Below the pieces are notes generated by a model, which was not told the DNA's origin, made no database searches, and saw only the letters and a list, made by a program, of their open reading frames with translations. This document shows positions 1,842 to 61,200 of a DNA stretch of 64,000 nt, in pieces. Numbering within the stretch: position 1 is the stretch's first letter; each line of letters opens with the position of its first letter. A program made the position numbers and the translations under genes. The DNA is from Cliona cf. orientalis (taxonomy: Eukaryota; Porifera; Demospongiae; Clionaida; Clionaidae), in contig OZ005689.1 of the NCBI GenBank assembly GCA_963930775.1, positions 14,942,923 to 15,006,922 on the forward strand, given 5' to 3'.

Positions 1842-3654
1842 TGGTTGCACAATCCTAGGTGCCTATACAAATACCATCTGACAGCTACCAAATCCTCATT
1901 CACATTACTGGGAAAATGGGACAGCATTTATCAAGTAAGAATACAATACTACCTTGAAAAGTTTATCCTCTAGTCTGACTTGCAGGGTATGTTACAGATG
2001 AGCTACAGGAAAGGGAGAGAGAGGTGCAGCACCTACAGCAGCTACAACAGCAGCTTGGTCTTAGAGGTACTAGCTATAGGCTGCATGCTTCACTATGTAT
2101 AATCATTCAATAATACTTTCTAGACCAGCGATACCAGCCATATAATATATGCAAGACAAAAAAAGGCAAAAGAACATCTCAGGTAAGTGCAAATGACAAA
2201 GAGCCATCTGTTTGCAGCAATATTGTGGGCAAATATTATAAGCAGTCACGGCTGACATACTAGAGGTTGAATTGACAGCTACATATTCACTTCTCCGAAC
2301 ACAGAAATCACAAACTCACCTTGTCTCTCATCCACCACAATCAGTTCCTCCTCCGCCAGCTGGTCAGCGATCCTCTGCTCCTCCTCCTCCAGCAGCGAGT
2401 CCCCCTCCTCCGGCTGGTCAGTGGCCTTCTGCTCCTCCTCCTCCAGCAGCGAGTCCGCCAGCTAATCGGTGGTCTTCTGCTCCTTGTACACCAGTAATGA
2501 GTCCTCCTCCGGTTAGTCAGTGGCCCTGTGCTCCTCCTCCTCCAGCAGTGAGTCCTCCTCCTCCGACTGGTCAGTGCCCCTCTACTCCTCCTCCAGCAGC
2601 GAGTCACCCTCCTCCGGCTGGTCAGTGACCTTCTGCTCCTCCTCTTCCAGCGAGTCACCCTCCTCTGGCTGGTCAGTGGTCCTCTACTCCTCCTCAGTGG
2701 CCCTCTGCTCCTCCTCCAGCAGCGAGTCACCCTTTTCCGGCTGGTCAGTGGCTTTCTGCTCCTCCTCCAACAGCTCCTCCTCTGGCTGGTCAGTGGCCCT
2801 CTGCTCCTCCTCCTCCAATGGCTGATCAGTGGCCCTCTACTCCTCCTTTGAGTCCCCCTCCTTCAGCTGGTCAGTGGCTCTCTGCTCCTCTTCCTCCAGC
2901 AGCGAGTCTTTCTCCTCCGTTAGGAATGAGTCCTCCTCCTCCGGCTGATCAGTGGCCCTCTACTCCTCCTGTGAGTCCTCCTCCTCCTCCGGCTGATCAG
3001 TGGCCCTCTACTCCTCCTGTGAGTCCCCCTCCTCCGGCTGGTCAGTGGCCCTCTGCTCCTCCTGTGAGTCCTCCTCCTCCGGCTGATCAGTGGCCCTCTA
3101 CTCCTCCTGTGAGTCCCCCTTCTCTGGCTGGTCAGTGGCCCTCTGCTCCTCCTCCTCCAGCTGCAATGAGTCCTCCTCCTCCAATGGCTGATCAGTGGCC
3201 CTCTACTCCTCCTTTGAGTCCCCCTCCTTCAGCTGGTCAGTGGCTCTCTGCTCCTTTTCCTCCAGCAGCGAGTCTTTCTCCTCCGGCTGGTCCTGCTTCT
3301 CCTCCGTTAGGAATGAGTCCTCCTCCTCCTGCTGATCAGTGGCCCTCTACTCCTCCTGTGAGTCCTTCTCCTCCAGCTGGTCAGTGGCCCTCTACTCCTC
3401 CTGTGAGTCCCCCTCCTCCGGCTGGTCAGTGGCCCTCTCCTCCTCCTCCTCCAGCTGCAATGAGTCCTCCTCCTCTGGCTGGTCGGTGGCCTTCTGCTGC
3501 TCCTCCTCCTCCAGCAGCAAGTCCCCCTGCTGGTCAGTGGCCCTCTGCTCCTCCTCCTCCAGCAGTGCGGCCTCCTCCTCCGGCTGGTCAGCGGCCCTCT
3601 GCTCCTCCTCCTCCAGCAATGAGTCCTCCTCCGCCAGCTCCACCAGTTACGTGA
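1842..3654 (+). CDS. Possible gene: coiled-coil exons spliced to a Pro-rich minisatellite exon
   Basis: Product not recognised. Successive candidate exons with consensus GT-AG borders keep one frame: 1842-1858, 1885-1934, 1986-2066, 2124-2182 and 2305-3654. The third encodes a Glu/Gln-rich helix (ELQEREREVQHLQQL). The last is a minisatellite translating to tandem Pro-rich units of 18 residues (GQWPSAPPPPAASPPPPA) and 15 residues (DQWPSTPPVSPPPPA). It is open from 2305 to the TGA at 3652-3654 except for one TGA at 2626-2628, where every other unit has TGG (Trp). Each unit also contains GGTCAGTGG, a donor-like sequence, so splicing inside the array could bypass that stop. No start codon was found, so the 5' end is missing. 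The phase agreement over four introns is the main support. The minus strand is open only over shorter stretches. Confidence 0.4.
2330..3645. repeat. Pro/Gln/Trp-coding minisatellite (54-bp and 45-bp units)
   Basis: Tandem CT-rich units of about 54 bp (18 codons) and 45 bp (15 codons), each with the invariant core CTGGTCAGTGGCCCTCTG. Unit length stays a multiple of three throughout, even across degenerate units at 2629-2817, which suggests the frame was under selection or that units spread by whole-unit copying. A block with the ATGGCTGATCAGTGG start occurs twice (2818 and about 3186), so a higher-order segment of roughly 370 bp was itself duplicated. Confidence 0.9.
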
Positions 3655-5005: not shown

Positions 5006-5710
5006 TCAGTGATACACTCTGTCATAAATGTCCAAACACTCTGCCAAGTGCTGCCTCATAGACCTGTGATCGTACTTGATCTTGCATGGGTCATTACCAC
5101 TGCAAATGTCGTATGCAAATGCTAAGGCAAGGACTCCACAATCGGAACCATTTGACTGCCTTCCAGCATCCATCATTCTCATTACAAGCTGTTTAGCAGG
5201 ACTGAACACAAGGCTGGCAATCAATTTGACCGTCCCACTGGAAGCACTGGAGTACATGCTGTCGTACACATTGACCACTCCATCGTCACATCCAACATTG
5301 GAAATAGTACACCAGTGACAGCCTCCAACAAAGATGATCTGCACAAATTCTCCTCTGAGGATTTGGAACAACAGAGTCCTGTGAACTGCCGGATCTTGCA
5401 GGCCGGCTATGTTTGGGAATTCCTGCAAGATGAGCAACTGACCGACCCTAATGACTGTGTCTGAGAGCCAACCATCAGATGAAACAATTTCCTGTTTCTT
5501 ATCTATGTGCAAGGTGTACAGTGGAGTGGACACCCAGGTGTTGCTTACAACTGCAGAACCATTAGCTGAAGACAAGGCTGTGGGATCGTCAGTCAGGTCA
5601 ACAACAGTCTTGGTTAGGCCACAGTTACACACTTTGAGATTTGCAGAATCATTAATTTTGCTACATCTCGTAGCGAGATCCTTCCTGCAGTTCGCCAGTT
5701 GTCTACTGAA
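5006..5710 (-). CDS. Ulp1/C48-like cysteine protease part of a Mutator-like transposon
   Basis: This C-terminal piece has the signature of Ulp1/SENP (C48) cysteine proteases. A His-Trp (CHWCTISNVGCDDG) is followed by an Asp in NVYDSMY, then a Gln and the catalytic Cys in QSNGSDCGVLALA, giving the usual His-Asp-Gln-Cys order. Such proteases are carried by several Mutator-like and related DNA transposons; their role in transposition is unknown. The frame is open upstream of the nearest start-like codon (reading RKDLATRCSKINDSANL), while the preceding transposon frame (5614-6000) overlaps it in another phase. A single frameshift near 5640-5710 therefore separates two halves of one ancestral protein. 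Confidence 0.7.
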   Translation of the reverse strand, partial: FSRQLANCRKDLATRCSKINDSANLKVCNCGLTKTVVDLTDDPTALSSANGSAVVSNTWVSTPLYTLHIDKKQEIVSSDGWLSDTVIRVGQLLILQEFPNIAGLQDPAVHRTLLFQILRGEFVQIIFVGGCHWCTISNVGCDDGVVNVYDSMYSSASSGTVKLIASLVFSPAKQLVMRMMDAGRQSNGSDCGVLALAFAYDICSGNDPCKIKYDHRSMRQHLAECLDIYDRVYH

Positions 5711-7139
5711 ATGGATGGATCACCGCTGATAGCCGTCAACTGCCCCTTTGCATAGCCAGTAGTGAGAACTCCCTTGTGACAACATAGTAGGCATCGATCA
5801 CCAAACACTTGCACAACGCAGCAAGGAAGGTGACATTTGCCCAATTTGCTATCATGCAAATTCACGCAGTCACCCACCTTGAAGTTGGGCCTAGGCCTTT
5901 TCGCTGGGGGAGGCTTCTCACCTCCTGGCTTTTCTCTCTTTCCTCGACGAGTGGACCTCGTATTGACTGGCTTGCTTGCTTTAGGAGGTTTGGATTTCAC
6001 ACAAGCATCATCCTTGCCATTCTAGTCAGAGTCAGCAAAAGAGGCCTTGGGAAACAATGTGCACCCAACGTAACGATTTCGTGAGTTTGAGGGGCAATCC
6101 CTCTTGTGTGCTCGTCCGAGCGCTCCGCACACGCAGATACCACTTATTATGTCATCTTCAAAACACCAACTAGTGTCACCAGTTGGGGTAGGCACACTTT
6201 TTTCCAAAGAAATGCTTTCCGTGTTTGACAGGGTATCCTCAGAATAGGAAATGACATCATTATTGTCAGATGCTCTGTCATCCACAGAAACACCACTTCT
6301 CTGATTTTTTACGTTCAAAGGACATTCACTATGGTTGGTACGTAGGTGAGTGGTGGACCCACACTTGCACGTCCCTCCAGTTGTACGCTTCTTCTGTCCT
6401 TTTCGTTTGAGTTCATCTTCGTCTATGTCACTGTCGTCACTGCCATAGGTATCATGGCCATGCTTCTTTGACCACAGCTTGCGACACTGTGCATCCACTG
6501 TTCGCTCACTTTTCAACTGTATTATTAGCAGCAGAGCCAGCTCGGTTGAAACCACATAGTGTAGCCTCTCGAGGAAGATGTGCTTTGGTCTGAAGCGAAT
6601 GAACGCATTGTGGGAGGCCTCCAACCAATTGGAATGCCCCCTTTTAAGAATGGGGTGAACCAGCTGTTCGGCCATTTCTGCTCTCTCATGGCATTCAATT
6701 TTGTAAGCCAGAGAGTGGAAAGGACATGTCAGTGCATGCCTTGTGTGATAGTCTGTTCCTTTGCACTTCAGATCCTCTCCATCCTCACACTCGCCACAGC
6801 TGCATACTCGAAGTTGGTGAAAGTCACACCTACCAAACCCCCAATCGTGCTCGTCGCGGGCATGTCTGGCCAATCCTTTCATCCTGGTTGCAAACTCTTC
6901 GGCGGATTCACTCATCGACAAAATTAGCGAAAAGTAGTTTCTAGCCTTTTCAATGAACGCCTTGGAGAAGCAACCACATCCCTGTTTGTGCCTTGAGCAA
7001 TGACAGACCACGTCGCCAACAGAGGGAAAAGTGTCTTTATACTTTCTTATTAAATCAACAGTGAAGGACTTGATTTTCTGCAGCTTTTCCAGCTGCTTCT
7101 TGTGGGCTCTACCGGCATGCCCACCACAGATCATGATCT
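5614..7139 (-). CDS. Mutator-like transposase C-terminal region with Cys-rich fingers (broken)
   Basis: The exon begins after a consensus acceptor (CTTTCTTTCCCAATGCAG on the minus strand, ending at 7140), so earlier exons are missing or unrecognised. The protein shows Cys/His clusters (CHCSRHKQGCGCFS), then HSNWLEASHNAFIRFR and LERLHYVVSTELALL. This pattern is typical, from memory, of Mutator-like (MULE) transposases in cnidarians and sponges. Two zinc-knuckle-like motifs follow (CKCGSTTHLRTNHSECP and CVCGALGRAHKRDCP). A TAG at 6022-6024 lies in frame between this part and the basic, Lys/Pro-rich continuation (to 5614), which holds a small beta-barrel-like stretch (FKVGDCVNLHDS). With the stop and the downstream frameshift the copy is inactive. 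No terminal repeats were located. Confidence 0.7.
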
Positions 7140-8560
7140 CTGCATTGGGAAAGAAAGAGTATCATTGGACGATCTTTGTGCTGATCTTGCCTCTCATCCG
7201 ATATTCTGGTACAGAATTCGACTCTTATAACAGTCATTTTCCATACATAGCTTCAATCTTTTTGTGTATGCCTCAATCATCAGGAAAAGCCGGACATGCT
7301 CTCAGCGTAATTCTATCTTACGTGGTTTGCTCATTCAACCGATTATAATTACGTAGACTCCCCCCCCCCCCCCCCTCAGAATCATCAGGTGATATACATG
7401 TAATAATCTGCCTATGAACATTGGCGGAAATTAAACTTGGAGATAGGACCCAACTTCGTTATTGCAAAAATAATACCCCCCCCCCACAAACAAACTCTTA
7501 TAACATGCGTTTATCACCTTACCTTGATAATACTGTCTATCACTGGCCTTTCTGATGTATCACCAGACACAGTATTCATACCCAGTGTAACACACACATA
7601 CTGTGTAAAAACAATAATAATTAAAGTTAATCGCTCAGGTCCGAGGCTAATATTTTCTTCAAGTACTCACTTTTTGTGCATCAGCACTCTCAACTGACTC
7701 CATATCACTGCAGAAGATGAATAGATACAGTATCACCATGCAAGCACTCCATTATGGTCACAATCACACTATGGTACGTATACTCACGTTAATATGTTGA
7801 ATAACAAAACTTGGATGAACTGTTGAAATTTCCAACACAAATCTCTGTAGAAATCAGCACAACACATAGCTAACAGACCATACACCTGTACATGTACCTT
7901 GAGTTTCAGAAAATTGTAGCAATAATAATAATATATTATGGATACACCCACATTTGATAGTAACCCAGTATTGCTCTGCAGACCTCTAAATGACCACCCC
8001 CAAATAAGATGGATACCCTTCTCACAAAAATAAATGACTACACCCTCCGTAATTATGACACTAATATAGCCCCATACACATGCTGAGCTAGTGAACAGCA
8101 CCAGGAACACATTACCAGCTCACATGCACAAGGGATAAAGTAATTGGTTTTGTCCGTCTGTCTAGATCTGTCTGTCACCACAAAATCGCCAGATCTGGAC
8201 ATCTAGGCATCTGAGCGACTAGTAAATATGACAAATCCATACAAGTCGTCCAAAATGTGTCTTCAGTATGCTTCAAATGGTTTGGCAAGGCCCACGAGCA
8301 TCGCAAACACTGCGTCTTTGTTGGCGACACCTATCGACTTGACCCATCCACTGCAGTCCATGTGTATACGTCAGCTACATACATGTATGCACACTACTGC
8401 TGCAGCTCTCATTTCTATGCAAACAGATGTGGATGCAGATGCAATGTGCGACGGGGTATGTATTCTATAAAGCTCAAGTTGTTTCGTAGTGCACTGGGTA
8501 TGGGCAAGATTATGCGTGACCCTGCCCCTCACGTAGCACATGGGCGGAAAACATTGCAAA
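7140..8560. other. Non-coding, homopolymer-rich
   Basis: This stretch contains C runs (near 7360-7376 and 7480) and AT-rich sequence. It may include 5' exons of the Mutator-like element, but none could be tied in by phase. No other gene is supported. Confidence 0.5.
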
Positions 8561-39500: not shown

Positions 39501-42500
39501 TCTGCCTAGCACAAGGTACTTATCATGATTGCTAAAAAAATCCCCTGATCGAAATTTTCATGGAAATATACATTGGATTGAAAGAATAGGAAGTGAACGT
39601 TTAAAGTCAATGCGAAAATTAATTTTCACACGAGACATACTGACAAAACTGTAGCCTTGCTGTGTTTGCTGATTGCCTGTGAATCCAAATTGAAGAGTAA
39701 AGTGTAGAGAAACGATGTTGAAGCTCTCTTGTGCATGCTCGAGAGACTGGGTAAAGCGAATTTCAATGCCAAACTACCTTGATCAGGGCACAAGTATATA
39801 GAAACCTCACTTCACTAGGATCAATAGTATTATGCATACATGCACATAGCCTTGTATATGTACCCAGGCTCTAATTATAAAAAAAGAGGGAGAAAAGAGA
39901 GCCTGGTGCATGTGTGCACATTTCCCAGGAATTTCATAAAAGTGTAAATTTTACCGTATTCCTCCGTAAACGACCCAATCAATTGCTTTATCAGCAGTTC
40001 TGTCCTTGTAGTTGTATCCATAGAGGCGCAAGTATCAGTTTGACGGCAAATTCTATGGCTCTACTTTGTGAGCAATTTTATCAGGTCCTTCAAATCAGTT
40101 TAGTGACTGTGTACACCTGCACACTTTGAAGCAGCTATGATATGGCATGGGAAGAACTCAACTGGCTGAAGCAGACCACAAAGCTTATAGTCATTACCCA
40201 TACAAATATGTGGGTTTTTTATCGTAGGATAAAATGGATTGGTAATATCAGACCATGAAATGTAATATTTCAGCATCATCACTCAAGTATCTGATCCATG
40301 AATCGAGTCATTCTGCTTGTTAGTTATGTATGAAAGATCTATATTATAGTGTCTTGCCTGTCTTGTCACAGGTCGTCATAATGGTATAGGTCATTTGCAA
40401 GCAGTCACTTGGTTTACATTAGTGCATACGCTATAACGGTAGGTACCAGGCTAACTTTTCCTCTCCAGCATAAATTAGACTAATGCCCATGGACAGCCGG
40501 TGGCACGGCCACACTTGTCAGTGTTAACCACAAGTCCGCGAGGTTGACAACGATAGCAGAAAACGCTCATCATATTTGAGGTCACTTAGTCAAGCTCAAC
40601 ATAAAGCGATAAACCTGTTCATAATCCCCAGCCTTTCTGTAGCTGCATGGCCAGCTCATATTACATTATACACTGAGCATAATATGCAGAATACAGTACA
40701 GATGTACCCAAGGAGAGAGTGAACGAAGTGAGCTCTCGATAATTATATCTTCAACACCTTTCATGTGTGTACACACATACCAACCACTGTTAAATTAATT
40801 CATTTAACCTTATTACAGGAACCTTGGAGGATTTGCCCACTAAAGATGAAACAGCTAGAGAGATCCTTCTTCACCAGCGAAATTCTCAACTGACGAAGAT
40901 GCAAAGTGAATACAAGTGGAAAATATGGTCTGAAACTGGTCTACCTTCCAGCATCGATGATACCTATACGAATCTTCCCAATGATGAACAGTTTGAGAGA
41001 ACTAAATGTGTCCATTTTACCGAGGACGCCATAGAGGGTGGTGCTAAGATTGCCTTTCAGTTGCCTTTTTTAAAGATAGAAGATCTACACACATATGAAC
41101 GAATGGAAGATTTGCACATATATGAGCAAGTGGCAATTTCACGAGGGAGACCAGAAGTGCGTGTGCATAATGCAGCTCGATGGACAACTGATGTGGAGTT
41201 CGGAAGGCAAATGCTAAATGGTGTGAATCCTGTAGTGATTGAGAGATGTACAAAACTTCCAGACAACTTTCCTGTGACCAATGAGATGGTTAAAGGGGTC
41301 CTTAATCGTGGACTAACTCTTCAACAGGAAATGGACGTATGTTGCAATAATAGTGTTATCTGCAAAACTATATTAAAAATCACATTAAAAACTATATTAA
41401 AAAAGTCTATAAAAAATCAGGATTCGATATGGAAACAGTGTTATGTGTTATAAATAATTATTCTTGGCCTTAGTATCTATCGTTAAATTAAACCAAATTG
41501 CAATTGCATGTACATTACATTTCATAGGAAGGACATGTCTATATCAACAATCTGAAAATCATGGATGGACTGCCAACCAGGGAAGGACAGTACAGTGCTG
41601 CTCCAATGTGTCTACTCTATGTCAATGGCAACAACCAACTGGTGCCAATAGCTATTCAGTTGAAACAGGAGCCAGCTGAGGACAATCCCATATTCCTTCC
41701 CAGTGATAATTGGATTGACTGGTTACTGGCAAAGATTTTTTATCAAAGTGCACATGCTCAGGTGTCTATACATAGCACTTTTCATGGGTTTTTTTTTTGC
41801 CCATGTGAAGGCTTGACTAGAATGAATTTAGTTTATCCTTTTGATCGAGTATTAAAAGTAATATAGATTTTGGGATTTCTGTGAAGAGTTCGAGAAGTTT
41901 TATTGAATATGTAGCCATGAGTTTCAGACTTCTTCAAGTTAACGTCACTGCATGAAGTGTATGCAAAATTCATTTCATACTGGGCTGATGCTACTGGAAA
42001 TGGACATCATTGATTGTTTTTGTTTGTTTTTTTACCTACATGTACCTACTGACCCTACTCTGTCCTATCAAATTAATAAGAGCCTAAGCTATATTGTGCT
42101 ATTTAATGTGCTCTCCACTGCGGATGGCATCCTCATTTGGCCCAGCTTTCACCCTTGCAGTTAATTGATATAGCTAGCTATTGATGCATGCCATCGTAAC
42201 TTTCGTCACAAGTTTAATTACAATTGTTAGCTATGGCCAGCTAACTATTAACGGACAACGAGCACTTTTGCCATAAGAGCTTTATACACTTGCATATAAA
42301 GATCTGACTTACAAACGTTGAAGGCATGATTGCAATCACATATTATTATAGTATACTAAGCCACTTGTGCATCATTTATGTATTGGAAACTATATAGCTA
42401 CTAAATAAGTGTGAAAGGAGTGATATCTTTTGAACAAAAGTTATGTATATAGAGGAAAAGTTGCGTTTAACTTGGCATAATGCATGTACAAACGCTCGAG

Positions 42501-44159
42501 ATGCTCGCATATAAAACATTGACATGTGATGATGTAAATTCCAACACACATGCACTGAGCCATATACATGTTGTCTCAGCTTCTGCATCCATGCAACTGC
42601 ACCTTTAGCTAATTAGCATGATCATTTCCACAGTATTTCTGTTACATCTCATAAGCTGCAGAAGCTAGGTTTATATTATGTTCAAAAATTTCAACTTGGT
42701 ATTGTATAGCATAATTTTTGATATGAATTCCCATGTGCTATCTAGCCCCCAGCTCTTAACCCTCTCCAATTATTATTACTTTATTACTGTTTACTAAGTC
42801 ATGCATTGCAAATATTCTTGTTTTTTTATGACCAATTTCCAGTTTCATCAACTCTCCACACACTACTTCTCCTGCCATGCTGCAATGGAGGCCTATGCTG
42901 TGGCCACCATGCGCACTCTTCCTGATGCTCATCCCATCAACAAGTTGCTACGACCCCATTTTCGCTATACCATGGCCATCAATTCTCGAGCTCGAGCCAC
43001 ACTCATCAATGATGGCGGCATTATTGATCAGTTCTTTGCAATTGGTGGGCTAGGAAAGGTTGAACTGTTCAAGCGGATTTCTGCAAATTACAGTGTTCAT
43101 TCAACAAATATTGTGAAGAGTGTAAGGGTGCGTGGGGTTGACGATGCCGACCTACTACCAGGCTATTACTATCGAGATGATGGGCTTAAGATATGGACAG
43201 CGATTGAAACATTTGTGAAGGAGTTTGTCGCTGAATTTTATGATAGTAATGAGAAAGTCAGTAACGATGCAGAGCTCAAGAATTGGGCAGAAGAAATCCA
43301 CACATTTGCGTTTCCTGGGGAGTTTGGCGCCAAACAGGGGCGTGGCTTTCCACAATACATTTCCACCAAAGAGGAGCTTATAGAGTACTGCACTCTCATC
43401 ATATTCACTGGGTCGGCACAGCATGCTTCCATCAACTTTCAGCAATACAGTATGTATGGGTTCGTGCCCAATGCTCCAGTAACCTTACGACTTCCCCCAC
43501 CCACCCAGAAGGGACAGGCCGACTATGTGCACTTGTTGAAAACACTGCCAAACAAACATGATGCTTCCAAGCAAATATTTGTCGCCTATTTACTGTCCCA
43601 GTACAGTCATGATGAGGTGAGTATATAATATTACATTATAACTGTACAATAGTTGGAGTAAAGATCAAAGGTGCCACCAGTAGTGCTTATCACAAACCAC
43701 TGTCTGCTCTGTGGACATGGTATACCCCCACCCCCAATAGCACAGAATAATATACCGGTATACCACAGGCCTTGTGGGAATACACCCTATAGTACAAGCC
43801 ACTTAGAGTATAGCCTGTTTATGGTTTTTGAATAGACCCCTGAGGCTGTCATACTGTTAAACCATTCCAGGCTATTACACTAACCATAACTTATAGTGTT
43901 AGTATAGCCTATGTAAGTTAATGATGTTATGTTCATAATGATTGACGGTGCATTATCTTTCTATGTACAATCTTATTAGATTTATTTGGGACACTATCCA
44001 AATAATCGCTTCAGTGAGTTGACGCCACATCGTCTTGCTCTTCGATTCCAGCACCGCCTTGATGCCATTGCTGCTGAGATTTTACAAAGGAACGAGAATG
44101 TGGATGTACCATACGTTAGCATGTTGCCACAGATGATCCCAAATAGTATAACTATATAA
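36509..44159 (+). CDS. PLAT-domain lipoxygenase (arachidonate lipoxygenase-like)
   Basis: Predicted 758 aa from coding exons 36509-36563, 38097-38240, 38821-39192, 40819-41336, 41528-41761, 42843-43616 and 43980-44159; all have GT-AG borders and consistent phases. The enzyme inserts O2 into polyunsaturated fatty acids to make hydroperoxides. Residues 1-66 are an acidic N-terminal extension. About 67-190 is the PLAT/LH2 domain (YGLSILTGTQDGAG), which binds membranes. The rest is the catalytic domain (FGRQMLNGVNPV, DNPIFLPSD, HPINKLLRPHFRYTMAIN). All five iron ligands are present: His448 and His453 (THYFSCH), His635 and Asn639 (QHASIN), and the C-terminal Ile758 (PNSITI). The Gly/Ala stereocontrol position is Ala491 (INSRAR), which predicts S-specificity. 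Phe505 and Phe506 replace the small 5-LOX pocket residues, so a 5-LOX activity is unlikely. There is no fused allene oxide synthase domain. The gene appears intact. Confidence 0.95.
37025..37155. repeat. Three-armed inverted repeat in lipoxygenase intron 1
   Basis: AAGCTTGGAGGGAATACTTA with TTCCATAGTAA pairs with TTACTATGAAATTTG and AATACTTCCTCCAAGCTT. A middle copy, TTACTATGGAATATTG, lies at about 37074. This is a small fold-back unit of unknown class. Confidence 0.75.
39193..40818. other. Lipoxygenase intron 3, nothing recognised
   Basis: AT-rich intron sequence. It contains a TAGCCTTGTATATGTACCCAGGCT motif split (near 39849-39870) related to the dispersed CTCGTCCCCAGGC family. No coding exon fits the flanking phases. 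Confidence 0.6.
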
Positions 44160-53640: not shown

Positions 53641-53659
53641 TGAATGGCTACTAGACTAA

Positions 53660-53720
53660 GCATCACGTACGCAACTGAAGCAGTTGCCACGGGAAACAGC
53701 TTCAGTTGCGTACGTGATGC
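53660..53720. repeat. Perfect 22-bp-arm hairpin
   Basis: GCATCACGTACGCAACTGAAGC is followed after 17 bp by its exact complement. Size and shape resemble a small-RNA precursor or a collapsed miniature transposon. It is absent from the sister repeats as far as could be read. Confidence 0.9.
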
Positions 53721-53925
53721 TCAGCTATAGCTAGTTGTAATTATTATAATGGGTAGCTAATCTTTGAATGAATAGTCCATGGCAGGTAGCTTGAAGCATA
53801 CACAGGTCATGAATAATTAATGCTTCTTCGGCAGCATGTGGTGCGTCGATAACTTGACGCTTCTGGGGAAGTACCTATGTAATGTATGGAAGCCGAGAAG
53901 TGCAATTTCCCGCACGACGCCCATT

Positions 53926-54450
53926 TCCGCATGCGGACGTACGTTCTCCGCGTGCGGAGAGCCAGCTCCGCATGCGGACGTACGTTCTCCGCGTGCGGAG
54001 AGCCATCTCCGCATGCGGGCAAACGTTCTTCGCATGCGGAGAGCCAGCTCCGCATGCGGGCGAACGTTCTCCGCGTGCGGAGCTATCTCTCCGCATGCGG
54101 GCGAACGTTCTCCGCATGCGGAGAGATAGCTCCGCATGCGGAGCAGGGTCTGCGCACACCGAGAAGTGCACCTCCGCATGCGGAGCAGGGTCTCCGCACG
54201 CCGAGAAGTGCACCTCCGCATGCGGAGGTACGTCTCCGCACGCCGAGAAGTGCACCTCCGCATGCGGAGGTACGTCTCCGCACGCCGAGAAGTGCACCTC
54301 CGCATGCGGAGGTACGTCTCCGCACGCGGAAAACGTTTGCCCGCGTGCGGAGGTGTTTTTGCCCGCGTGCGGAGTTGGCTCTCCGCACGCGAAGAACGTT
54401 TGCCCGCATGCGGAGCTGGCTCTCCGCACGCGAAGAACGTTTGCCCGCAT
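53926..54450. repeat. GC-rich array of TCCGCATGCGGA palindromes
   Basis: At least twenty copies of the 12-bp palindrome TCCGCATGCGGA or the variants TCCGCGTGCGGA and TCCGCACGCGGA occur, spaced about 20-21 bp. The left part alternates with ACGTACGTTC and GAGCCAG linkers. The right part has an exact 42-bp period (GAGAAGTGCACC starts at 54161, 54203, 54245 and 54287). Because 42 is a multiple of three and the units are palindromic, frames of about 100-210 codons are open on both strands. They are unlikely to be genes. The array is an isolated GC-rich island in AT-rich DNA. Confidence 0.9.
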
Positions 54451-55230
54451 TAGTTTACAAAATCTCTGCCCTATCCGCTGCCAAACATGTGTCGGAAAGC
54501 TTAACATGACATAAAGGAAATCTTACTTTTGGTCCATAGAGTGTGCATAATGCCAAGAGTATAAAGAGTATAAGAGAAAGTCAAGCCAAACCATAAAAGG
54601 AATGCTTACAATAACGCCCATGCTGGACTGGGCAATTCTTTACGCGTGAATAGAATGCTTGGGCTCTGAATAGCACTACTGGTGAGGACTTGCCCTTATG
54701 ACATAGTTTTGCACTCTATCAGGGGTGTTAAAATTACCTGAAGGACCTCTCTTTATTATTATGTATGTTGTATCAAGGTAATAGGAACATAATAATTATG
54801 CCGTTTAAGATTGAGATAAAGATTACACCTTTTAATGCATAATGTACCAAGTTAGTCTCTCTCCCTCACTCTCATCATGGTGTTAATGTCTACCTTTGAG
54901 TGCATCTTTTCACACACCAATCACTACTGCCATAATAACACAATTATCTAGCAAAGATAATCACATTATTGTTTTTTCCTCTCCCCTAACCCTCCTAGGG
55001 AAATCCCTTGGGGAATCCCCCTGGGGCACATAGAATGTCTGTCTATACACTGAGAACCTGCAAGATAAAAGACCCAGATCACACCAAATTAGGACATTTT
55101 GAAGGAGTTGGAATCTTAGGGGAGAGAACCAGGGATCTTCCCCTCCCAATGAAATGAGCAGAACAATGTTATAAGTAGTAAAAACACTCAACCAGCCTTG
55201 AGAAGGCCCCAGTAATATGTAGAAGATCAC
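54451..55230. repeat. AT-rich dispersed repeat mosaic, part 2
   Basis: 54615-54700 (CATGCTGGACTGGGCAATTC, then GAATAGAATGCTTGGGCTCT) is the inverted partner of 61150-61232. 54715-54765 (ACCTGAAGGACCTCTCTTTA) recurs directly at 62728-62780. No gene is supported. Confidence 0.65.
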
Positions 55231-58217: not shown

Positions 58218-61200
58218 GCTATAATTTTATCCATTCAGGCAAATAGCCTGCCATTGTACATATCTGTCCACCAATTTGGTTAAAAATAGGATCTCAATAA
58301 CTGATCCTGTGGCTACTTGGCGCTATAGAAGCTGTCACTGGCCTGTGGCGTTTGTGTCGGATTGAGTCAACAAGAGTGGAAAACCAGAGTTCTGGTGTAC
58401 TATATAGCTACCAGTACTGCTGTGGCTTGAAGGTTAGCTATACTACAACAATACAGTGGTGAGACCAACTGATAAGTCCCATCACCTGCGGTTACTTACT
58501 CTTTTGTTGTGGTTGACTGATTAAATCAAGGAACAAAACAGAATTGTCTAGACTTCAGGTTATTCATTGACTATGCTGTTTTATTGAGTTTCGTAGTACA
58601 TTCCATATAATAATTATTTTGAAACGCTATTATTATTGTGTGTGTGTTTGTACGTATTCAGGCATAAGGAATTGCCCAGCCCTGCATGGCCTACACCACT
58701 GTATCATGAACTGCAGTTTTGTATTGCACAATTCATTAATCAATATTATGAACATTGCCTAAGAATCTGTGCTGTATATTTACAATACTGTGCATACCAG
58801 AAAATAATATTATTATCTCCAGCAGTGTGTAGCAATAGCTTGTATATATTGCGCAATGCTCAGCTGTTCCTAATTAATTATAATAGTGACATGTAGGTAG
58901 CTTGAAGCATGTTTGTATAAGTCATGAATAATGATAATTATTATTACAATAATGCCTCCTCTACACCATGACTCCTTACAGTGGGTGGTAGTGGTACACA
59001 CCAGGGTAATTGTGCCATTTTATAGCTCATTAACTTCTACTTAGCTAGCTACTCAATATTAAATTTGTACTTGATTCATCACTTACCGTGTTTATCATGT
59101 GTGTGCATGTTGGGAGCACTCCGGATCCATTGAGACCACCCATACTACGATAGAGTGAACACAAAATTTATTATCACACTCAATCCCATAGTTGTATTAT
59201 CGACGACTACATGCAGTTGTCTGAGCTATTTGCTCAAGTGCTTCCTCCATTTGATCACAGACTCATTGACATAAAGTTTCTATTTTAAACACGTAATATT
59301 ATTGTGTATGCACACTACTTCCTTGAGCAATTTAGAAGCCCATTATTCAACTTTTTCAAGAAGCTGCCTATTATTAAAAAAATTATTCACAAATATTTGG
59401 CCCAGGCCTAACTATATTATGCTGTTTTGTATAATAATTGAGTTTCATAGTACATTCCATTAATTTTATTAAATTGACCATTGACTATAAGATTCATTCT
59501 GTTGTGGTTGTGGCTCGTTGAACCTTTCCTCATGACCTTGCCTAACAGCTGTTATACTGTTACCTAGGTAACTAGTGACAGAATAATTATTCTCTAATAC
59601 AGTATAACATCTGATTCAATATTCTATTTTCAAACAGATTCATGTTATTTAGTGTATACAGTGACACTGTGGTCAACATGCTCAAAGAATAGGTACTAGC
59701 TAGGTAATCATAGTAAATTCCTATGTCAACATCTGTCAAATCAGCTGTAACATAATAGAGTACGATGGATACCCCTCCCTATGATTGTATACGATTGCTC
59801 AATACAAGACTCAGCGAATAATGCACAATGCACACACATGCATACATCCTTGATTCACAAAGTACTATATATATATATAAATGATTTATTCTAGTCAGAA
59901 AAGGATCAGGCATTCCTTTCCCATTTATAGCAATAATATTGGTTAGCTAACTTCTGTCTAAACTCTAGTGCTGGCATTGCCCAACACTCATGATTATTTT
60001 ATTATAATTATGCAAAATTGTTTTGGATATTCACGACTTGTGTTCAAAATAAATGATTATAATCAGCTTATGTGGGTGTACATCGGCTATTCATATAATG
60101 GGTAGCTAATCTTTGAATGAATAGTGGCAGCATGTTAACACAGGTCATGAATAATTAATACATGTTCAGCAGCATGTGGTGCATTGACAACTTGGCGCCT
60201 CTGGGGAAGTAGCTATGTAATGATTACCTCATCAAAGGATTACACATAATACCAAGAGTATAATAATAGTAAAGAGAGAGGGAAAGTGTCCTACCCCTTT
60301 ATACAGATGCTGTTGACTTTTTAGTGCTGGTTTACACGATGAGCATAATAATACACAACCATAATTATTATCATAGTCTAATAATTAATAATGATTGCTA
60401 TAAAGAAAGCTCCTCCAGATGATTTAAGATAGATAGTGATTTCGTGACCCAATCATTAGTTTCAAAAGTGTGTGAGCAGAATTTTATGCAATGATTATTA
60501 TTTTGTGCAACATGACATTGTGTTCATTCATAATGTGTCTTTCCTGCTAATTAATTTTGTGGGCCATGGTTGATGATAAATATACAGTGCACAATGCATG
60601 TGTGTCCCACAAAGTAAACTGATTATTCTAGTCAGAAAAGGATCATGCATTCTTTTCAGTATATAGGCACCGCTTACTCTATTGTACTTCAGAAGAGAAA
60701 ATTCTTATTAGCTACTTAGATATTCATAACTTGTGTAAAGGGAGTATCATCTGCAATGATTATAAGCAAAATTATTATGTGGGTGCAAATATCACACATG
60801 AGTCATATGTCACACAAGCACATGTCCATGCGCATGTGTGTGTTCTTCAGCTGACCATCAGTGGTAAACAACACTTTCTAAGATGATATGCATGGATCAG
60901 GAAAAAGAATTATAATACCATGCAAAAATTTCGTTGTTAATTTTGTGCGAGGTAACGAAACTTTTTTACACGAAAATAGTTTATCTGGTAGGCTTAAATT
61001 CATCGCCATCTTTCATGTTTGAAGTAAAAGAATGTAGTATGCGAAAAACTGGTCTTTAATATCAGATTTGATGAATCATTGTTGTTTTTCCAATGCATTG
61101 TTATTAAAGTTCACTGTGGTTAAAGATATAGAATGCAAAACTATATCACAAGGGGAAGTCCTCACGAGTATTGCTATATATATAGAGCCCAAGCATTCTA

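What the first reader, a model, noticed from the sequence alone, without database searches (positions are those of the whole stretch)
53886..54545. GC-rich palindromic array inserted into one copy of an AT-rich repeat
The array of TCCGCATGCGGA-type palindromes (53926-54450) is flanked by sequence (GCAGCATGTGGTGCGTCGAT and GGGGAAGTACCTATGTAATG on the left, ATAATGCCAAGAGTATAA on the right). The same flanks occur at 60150-60270 but are joined there by only about 30 bp of unrelated sequence. The roughly 660-bp block is thus an insertion or a local expansion. Exact 42-bp periodicity, embedded dyads and open frames on both strands are unusual. It might be a mobile palindromic satellite, a protein-binding array or a recombination-prone element.
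Basis: partly seen in the sequence, partly recalled or inferred. Interest (0 to 1): 0.8.

Follow-up and report, generated by a model that had tools for sequence, protein, structure and literature searches.

The report
Jumping gene filled with palindromic repeats
The palindromic repeat array is the body of a small, now damaged jumping gene (a DNA transposon) whose relatives have inserted at many places in this genome, and its repeats look like stacked docking sites for the enzyme that moves it.

Summary
The array is real and is an insertion, but not a free satellite. Elsewhere in the 216.8-Mb genome the TIR bounds copies with a 6-bp target duplication: exact in 20 of 22 copies tested (19 of 21, one more), against 0 of 420 mispaired controls. 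Two copies on different contigs differ at 1 of 903 bases, so movement was recent. The 6-bp duplication, the TATGG/TGTGG ends, and an intron-split integrase core (Pfam rva_4, E 9.5e-17 for three joined exons) inside a 10.77-kb copy with the same ends point to the IS3EU/GingerRoot superfamily. A KDZ transposase inside another copy proved to be a separate nested transposon. CCGCATGCGG palindromes sit mostly 20-22 bp apart (about two helical turns). A sister subfamily with nearly the same TIR tip carries arrays of CCCGCAT, the same half-site. I infer transposase-binding arrays, as in the foldback-like element Galileo; this is untested. New variant of a known kind.

The parts
53741..53884. left flank: AT-rich host repeat; 5 paralogues without the element found (one of them at 60101-60230 of this window)
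   Evidence: identity 90, 86, 81, 78 and 76%; no array palindromes in those five loci
53879..53884 (.). GTAATG, expected surviving copy of the 6-bp target duplication (the right copy was lost)
   Evidence: position next to the TIR; paralogue L017 reads GCAATG; inference
53885..53936 (+). left terminal inverted repeat TATGGAAGCCGAGAAGTGCAATTTCCCGCACGACGCCCATTTCCGCATGCGG
53926..54450 (.). array of CCGCATGCGG-type palindromes, mostly 20-22 bp apart, arranged as inverted arms around a centre
54155..54297 (+). central units that repeat the TIR-tip word CCGAGAAGTGCA (starts 54159, 54201, 54243, 54285)
54450..54451 (.). breakpoint: the element's last ~45 bp (right TIR), one target copy and 95 bp of host DNA are missing
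54451..54762 (.). right flank, host repeat, 91% to paralogue L017; not part of the insertion
60101..60280 (.). diverged element-free paralogue of the host repeat

Best explanation
The block is a truncated, non-autonomous DNA transposon of an IS3EU/GingerRoot-like family with foldback-type ends. SHOWN: copies share a TIR that starts TATGG or TGTGG, carry arrays of CCGCATGCGG palindromes just inside it, and have 6-bp target duplications. A 10.77-kb copy with the same ends and an exact target duplication contains exons of a DDE-type integrase core and shares up to ~380 bp next to its array with 12 other copies. Two copies on different contigs are nearly identical. The window copy has lost its right end. 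INFERRED: an integrase of this family acts in trans on the short copies, cutting at TRTGG and joining to a 6-bp staggered target. The palindromes, about two helical turns apart, are a ladder of binding sites that loads transposase (or a partner protein) and helps the ends meet. They grew by tandem duplication of TIR-proximal sequence.
For: Target duplications: exactly 6 bp in 19 of 21 copies with both ends recognised and both flanks held, 5 of 6 bases in the other 2, 0 of 420 mispaired controls; a 22nd copy reads GGTCAC/GGTCAC and one sister-subfamily copy TTATGC/TTATGC. TIR sites genome-wide, sister subfamily included: 115 forward and 110 reverse at up to 2 mismatches, 0 and 0 for the reversed-pattern control. 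In print: 6-bp TSD, TIRs over 30 bp and TAYGG..CCRTA ends for IS3EU of rust fungi (PMC12730594, passages); TA..TA for IS3EU, mostly TA..TA and occasionally TG..CA for GingerRoot, 6-bp TSD (PMC10045372, passages). Integrase: rva_4 has 137 matches (exon pieces counted apart) in this genome and none in 14 control genomes, one of them inside the 10.77-kb copy; its first exon alone scores E 4.9e-8 and three exons joined at splice sites that I predicted score E 9.5e-17. No other copy of that region above 82% identity was found. Up to ~380 bp beside its array is shared with 12 of 27 other array loci held, at both ends in 7 of them. Recency: 1 difference in 903 bp between C6:10852838 and C15:6851036. 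Array: 653 of 716 palindrome spacings are 18-24 bp, mean 20.7, over 20 copies; the window centre repeats the TIR-tip word four times, and 17 of 19 other copies hold GCCGAGAAGTGCA more than twice. In the sister subfamily CCCGCAT is tandem inside nearly the same TIR tip; 9 of 10 such clusters listed on C1 and C2 lie within 1.2 kb of a listed TIR. Precedent: the Galileo THAP domain binds sites in repeats of its long TIRs (PMC3688188, abstract and section 2.6).
Against: Exons 2 and 3 alone gave no Pfam match. About 2.85 kb of the 10.77-kb copy is unread, so a nested integrase unit is not excluded. The window copy is array-only and is not among the 12 that share the inner ~380 bp; it is tied to the C11 copy by TIR and array alone. 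That rva_4 is the IS3EU transposase domain is recalled, not tested. TGT ends fit GingerRoot's rarer TG..CA but not TAYGG. Another long copy (C14, 6.9 kb) holds a P-like TNP RNase H gene whose status (nested or not) I could not test. Two of 19 copies lack the TIR-tip word in their arrays. Phase coherence of the window palindromes at 10.5 bp is only moderate (R 0.45, no control). There are no binding data.
Confidence: 0.75

Rival explanations
1. The same transposon, but the arrays are passive: slippage and gene conversion of a TIR-proximal palindrome, with no role in transposition.
For: Copies made of TIR and array alone vary in length from 575 to 1007 bp. Palindromic tandem repeats are prone to such expansion (general knowledge). 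Central units copy the TIR tip, as plain duplication would produce; shared ancestry of the two subfamilies could also explain the shared hexamer.
Against: Two subfamilies with nearly the same TIR tip carry differently built arrays from the same hexamer CCGCAT. Spacing is held at 20-22 bp for the most part. Repeats in long TIRs bind transposase in Galileo.
Confidence: 0.3
2. The arrays bind a host factor (methyl-CpG or zinc-finger protein, insulator or silencing factor) rather than the transposase.
For: CpG observed/expected is 1.36 in the array against 0.51 in the window.
Against: The tested words lie in or beside TIR copies: 11 of the 12 palindrome loci listed on C1 and the first 5.2 Mb of C2 (50 of 194 sites listed) and 9 of 10 CCCGCAT clusters listed on C1 and C2. 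A host site would be expected outside the element too.
Confidence: 0.1
3. The family is mobilised by a KDZ (Zisupton-type) transposase, because a copy on C16 with the same ends encloses KDZ and CxC3 domains.
For: Pfam KDZ E 2.2e-13 and CxC3 E 1.4e-16 inside the 6.2-kb C16 copy.
Against: That KDZ unit has its own ~105-bp inverted repeats, found twice more (C1, C2) with no array TIR beside them at up to 1 mismatch. GAGAGA stands at both of its junctions with the array. Published KDZ duplications are 7 or 8 bp (PMC12730594, passages).
Confidence: 0.04
4. A simple local satellite or an assembly artefact.
For: Tandem structure.
Against: 194 exact CTCCGCATGCGGAG sites genome-wide; at least 22 two-ended copies tested with 6-bp duplications, exact in 20, on contigs of megabases.
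Confidence: 0.01

Closest known systems
IS3EU / GingerRoot DNA transposons
   Same: 6-bp target duplications, TA..TA (sometimes TG..CA) ends, TATGG..CCATA, TIR longer than 30 bp, integrase core inside a long copy
   Different: Long palindromic arrays just inside the TIR. My paper searches on IS3EU (20 of 35 papers listed) listed no such architecture. Links of IS3EU to satellite DNA are in print: oyster CgiSat35 and CgiSat47 are labelled DNA/IS3EU (PMC8268682, passage) and half of the beetle TCAST10 repeat resembles IS3EU-1_TC (PMC5844308, passages).
Galileo (Drosophila, foldback-like, P superfamily)
   Same: Long, internally repetitive TIRs; repeats there carry transposase (THAP) binding sites (PMC3688188, abstract and section 2.6)
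   Different: P-type transposase and long direct repeats instead of 20-22-bp palindromes
Tetris (Drosophila virilis foldback element)
   Same: Tandem repeats inside the TIRs that share a 37-bp stretch with the outer TIR domain; non-autonomous; seeds satellite arrays (PMC4079207, passages)
   Different: About 220-bp repeats; 8-10-bp duplications; no autonomous partner found there
Zisupton / KDZ transposons
   Same: A KDZ unit lies inside one copy (C16)
   Different: It is nested; KDZ elements make 7-8-bp duplications

Membership tests
IS3EU/GingerRoot | 6-bp target site duplication | tested here: met
   19 of 21 exact, plus 1 of 1 further copy and 1 of 1 sister-subfamily copy
IS3EU/GingerRoot | TA..TA (GingerRoot occasionally TG..CA) termini; TAYGG..CCRTA | tested here: met
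   All 48 ends printed read TAT or TGT before GGAAG; the TGT ends fit TG..CA but not TAYGG
IS3EU/GingerRoot | TIRs longer than 30 bp | tested here: met
   outer ~52 bp near-identical between the two ends in most copies
IS3EU/GingerRoot | DDE integrase-type transposase in autonomous copies | tested here: inconclusive
   rva_4 E 9.5e-17 over profile 7-96 of 194 in a copy with the same ends; motifs of the first two acidic residues seen, the third not read
IS3EU/GingerRoot | Transposase falls in the IS3EU/GingerRoot clade in a tree | not tested
   no reference transposase sequences held
Foldback-type structure | Long TIRs with internal tandem repeats | tested here: met
   ungapped 190-bp arm identity 0.42-0.93 over 19 copies
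KDZ (Kyakuja-Dileera-Zisupton) | 7-8-bp target duplications | tested here: not met
   6 bp
KDZ (Kyakuja-Dileera-Zisupton) | KDZ transposase integral to the element | tested here: not met
   nested unit with its own TIRs
Galileo / P superfamily | P-type transposase integral to the element | tested here: inconclusive
   TNP-like RNase H E 1.4e-10 inside the C14 copy; none of the ten best other matches in the genome lies within 400 kb of a TIR site listed
hAT6 | 6-bp duplications with a hAT transposase | not tested
   hAT genes were not searched
Polinton | 6-bp duplications with a Polinton gene set | not tested
   6-bp TSD is shared (PMC10045372, passage); Polinton genes were not searched

The most novel reading that the evidence does not exclude
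An IS3EU/GingerRoot lineage has evolved foldback-type ends in which its transposase reads a 'ladder' of dyad sites (CCGCATGCGG) on one face of the helix. A sister subfamily re-coded the same hexamer as 7-bp direct repeats, so the two arrays are alternative grammars for one DNA-binding protein.
Probability: 0.35. Interest if true: 0.6.

Novelty: new variant of a known kind. Interest (0 to 1): 0.42.

Why it matters
It shows how a short palindromic 'satellite' can be spread through a genome inside a transposon, and it adds foldback architecture to a superfamily for which my searches listed none. Many near-intact copies, one candidate autonomous copy and two sister arrays sharing a hexamer make the binding-array idea directly testable.

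Tried and rejected
KDZ partner: first favoured because of KDZ and CxC3 domains inside the C16 copy, rejected when the unit's own TIRs were found elsewhere without the array TIR.

Coding array: judged unlikely, because the DNA is stop-poor and open in several frames at once; no coding test was made.

P-like transposase in the C14 copy: left open. One search gave 74 matches, itself included; none of the ten best others lies within 400 kb of a TIR site listed (exact sites listed in full; 1-mismatch sites listed only for C1, C2 and the start of C3; 2-mismatch sites not listed).

Kinase-like exons in the 10.77-kb copy: a DNA search returned mainly an unrelated repeat nested there (40 of 211 candidates scored), so the gene's origin is open. 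Two L067 frames tried as an N-terminal part of the integrase gave no Pfam match. The joined exons gave no PDB match up to E 1.

Rows dropped: one search prints 48 ends chosen from the hits; hits with 11 or 12 mismatches to the 35-base seed were left out. The 21 copies are those with both ends recognised and both flanks held; C1:12028923 was left out there (diverged seed) and tested. Other two-ended copies, among them C2:1393477, C7:6384913, C12:6613572 and C14:7375129, were not tested because flanks were not held. One search used 19 complete copies plus the window copy; C11 and C16 were not in it. Clusters were grouped by eye, from lists cut at 100 rows.

Full report
What is there. The window lies in a 216.8-Mb, 149-contig genome (G000:C1:14942923-15006922), eukaryotic by its intron-split genes; no species name is given. 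The array reported at 53926-54450 is real: 24 of the window's 27 near-matches to TCCGCATGCGGA fall in it, and 100 shuffles gave a mean of 0.90 over the whole window. Its palindromes lie mostly 20, 21 or 22 bp apart; over 20 copies (19 complete ones and the window's) 653 of 716 spacings are 18-24 bp with mean 20.7, and 38 are 17 bp. TRF calls the period 41 and 20, not an exact 42.

It is a transposon. A search with the left flank (41 matches, 40 of 72 candidates scored) showed that window 53885-53925 recurs on many contigs, often in inverted pairs around similar arrays, while the sequence further left recurs in five places without any array. Aligning the ends gave a shared terminal inverted repeat, TRTGGAAGCCGAGAAGTGCAATTT..., printed for 48 ends. 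In 21 copies with both ends recognised and both flanks held, the 6 bases outside the two ends are identical in 19 and match at 5 of 6 in the other 2; lefts paired with wrong rights matched in 0 of 420. A further copy reads GGTCAC on both sides. At up to 2 mismatches there are 115 forward and 110 reverse TIR sites, a sister subfamily included; the reversed-pattern control has none. Two copies on C6 and C15, in opposite orientation, differ at 1 of 903 bases, so the family moved recently.

The window copy. The element begins at 53885. Its array runs to ...TTTGCCCGCAT at 54450, where complete copies continue into the right TIR. The paralogue at C1:15970608 (L017) shows the empty site: its left part matches the window to GTAATG (there GCAATG), 95 bp follow that the window lacks, and then it matches 54451-54762 at 91% (alignment). 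So the right TIR, one target copy and 95 bp of host DNA were lost.

Which superfamily. Three long copies were examined. The 6.2-kb C16 copy contains CxC3 and KDZ domains (E 1.4e-16 and 2.2e-13), but these belong to a nested unit. Its own ~105-bp inverted repeats recur at C2:7424994/7433622 and C1:35809161/35817943, where one search lists no array TIR at up to 1 mismatch, and GAGAGA stands at both of its junctions with the array. The 6.9-kb C14 copy contains a TNP-like RNase H gene (E 1.4e-10); I could not read its ends, so whether it is nested is open. The 10.77-kb C11 copy (target CTGATC on both sides) contains exons of an integrase core. A genome search with Pfam rva_4 gave 137 matches and none in 14 control genomes, one of them inside this copy. 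The 600 bases I could fetch there hold three exons with the motifs GPNYIWHVDGYDKL, SRKMLWLK and CPRVLRSDYGTENV. The first scores E 4.9e-8 to rva_4, the other two alone give no family, and the three joined give E 9.5e-17, with rve at 0.012 below its cut-off. No near-identical copy was found elsewhere: 12 other places match at 74-82%, all within the first-exon region. The next 1.1 kb towards the TIR is likewise unique apart from its last ~60 bases. Up to ~380 bp beside the array is shared at roughly 66-81% with 12 of 27 other array loci held, at both ends in 7 of them; the window copy, which is array only, is not among them. This makes the C11 copy the best candidate for an autonomous or formerly autonomous member.

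Comparison with print. IS3EU elements of rust fungi make 6-bp duplications, have TIRs over 30 bp and end TAYGG..CCRTA (PMC12730594, passages). IS3EU is described as always TA..TA, and GingerRoot as mostly TA..TA and occasionally TG..CA, with 6-bp duplications (PMC10045372, passages). The array family fits: TAT and TGT ends coexist. KDZ elements make 7-8-bp duplications (PMC12730594, passages). hAT6 and Polinton also make 6-bp duplications and were not searched for. That rva_4 corresponds to the IS3EU transposase is my recollection; a tree would be needed.

What the array may do. The palindrome CCGCATGCGG is two overlapping copies of CCGCAT. A sister subfamily with nearly the same TIR tip (TATGGAAGCCGAGAAGGGCAATTT), also with a 6-bp duplication in the one copy tested (TTATGC), has tandem CCCGCAT instead. 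Of the CCCGCAT clusters listed on C1 and C2, 9 of 10 lie within 1.2 kb of a listed TIR. For the palindrome, 11 of the 12 loci listed (C1 and the first 5.2 Mb of C2) lie in or beside a TIR-bearing copy, and the twelfth (C1:7319524) has sequence like the C11 interior. The centre of the window array repeats the TIR-tip word CCGAGAAGTGCA four times, and 17 of 19 other copies hold GCCGAGAAGTGCA more than twice, that is, beyond their two ends. In Galileo, the THAP DNA-binding domain of the transposase binds sites inside tandem repeats of the long TIRs (PMC3688188, abstract and section 2.6), and in Tetris the TIR repeats share 37 bp with the outer TIR domain (PMC4079207, passages). I therefore favour a ladder of binding sites for the element's own transposase, placed about two helical turns apart, with passive expansion as the main rival. 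Phase coherence within the window array is moderate (R 0.45 at 10.5 bp, no control). No binding was tested.

Verdict. A truncated non-autonomous member of an IS3EU/GingerRoot-like transposon family with foldback-style palindromic arrays: ordinary in kind, unusual in architecture. Ten paper searches were made. Those on IS3EU (20 of 35 papers listed) or combining IS3EU or GingerRoot with tandem repeats or foldback listed no description of this combination; the library holds open-licence papers only.

Noticed in passing
L077 (C11:6464900-6468400) 2152-2541 and 3179-3499, + strand: The 10.77-kb copy carries protein-kinase-like exons (PF00069, E 0.0027 each, below cut-off) on the strand opposite to the integrase. 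TET+ IS3EU families of fungi have an alpha-kinase gene opposite to the transposase (PMC12730594, passage), though that is another kind of kinase.
   Followed up: partly
G000 genome: rva_4 integrase is abundant: 137 matches (exon pieces counted apart), a number of them in open frames of 250-480 aa, so this host seems to carry a large load of integrase-type transposons.
   Followed up: no
C1:35809161-35817943, C2:7424994-7433622, C16:5835958-5841577: KDZ transposon family with ~105-bp inverted repeats; the C16 copy is nested in an array element with GAGAGA at both junctions.
   Followed up: partly
window 53656-53724: Near-perfect hairpin (33-bp arms, 91%, 3 nt between them) just left of the element; part of its right arm is present in paralogue L017.
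   Followed up: no
L079 (C1:214850-217800): Sister-subfamily copy: inverted ends of about 436 bp (84%), CCCGCAT arrays, and an apparently nested second element with 55-bp inverted ends.
   Followed up: partly
window 40794-43628: Lipoxygenase exons (PF00305, E 2.6e-8 and 4.2e-59).
   Followed up: no
window 2341-3654: Minisatellite of 45-105-bp units with long open frames.
   Followed up: no
window 5006-7161, - strand: Two open frames, one with a weak Ulp1-protease match (E 0.00078, below cut-off); possibly transposon-derived.
   Followed up: no
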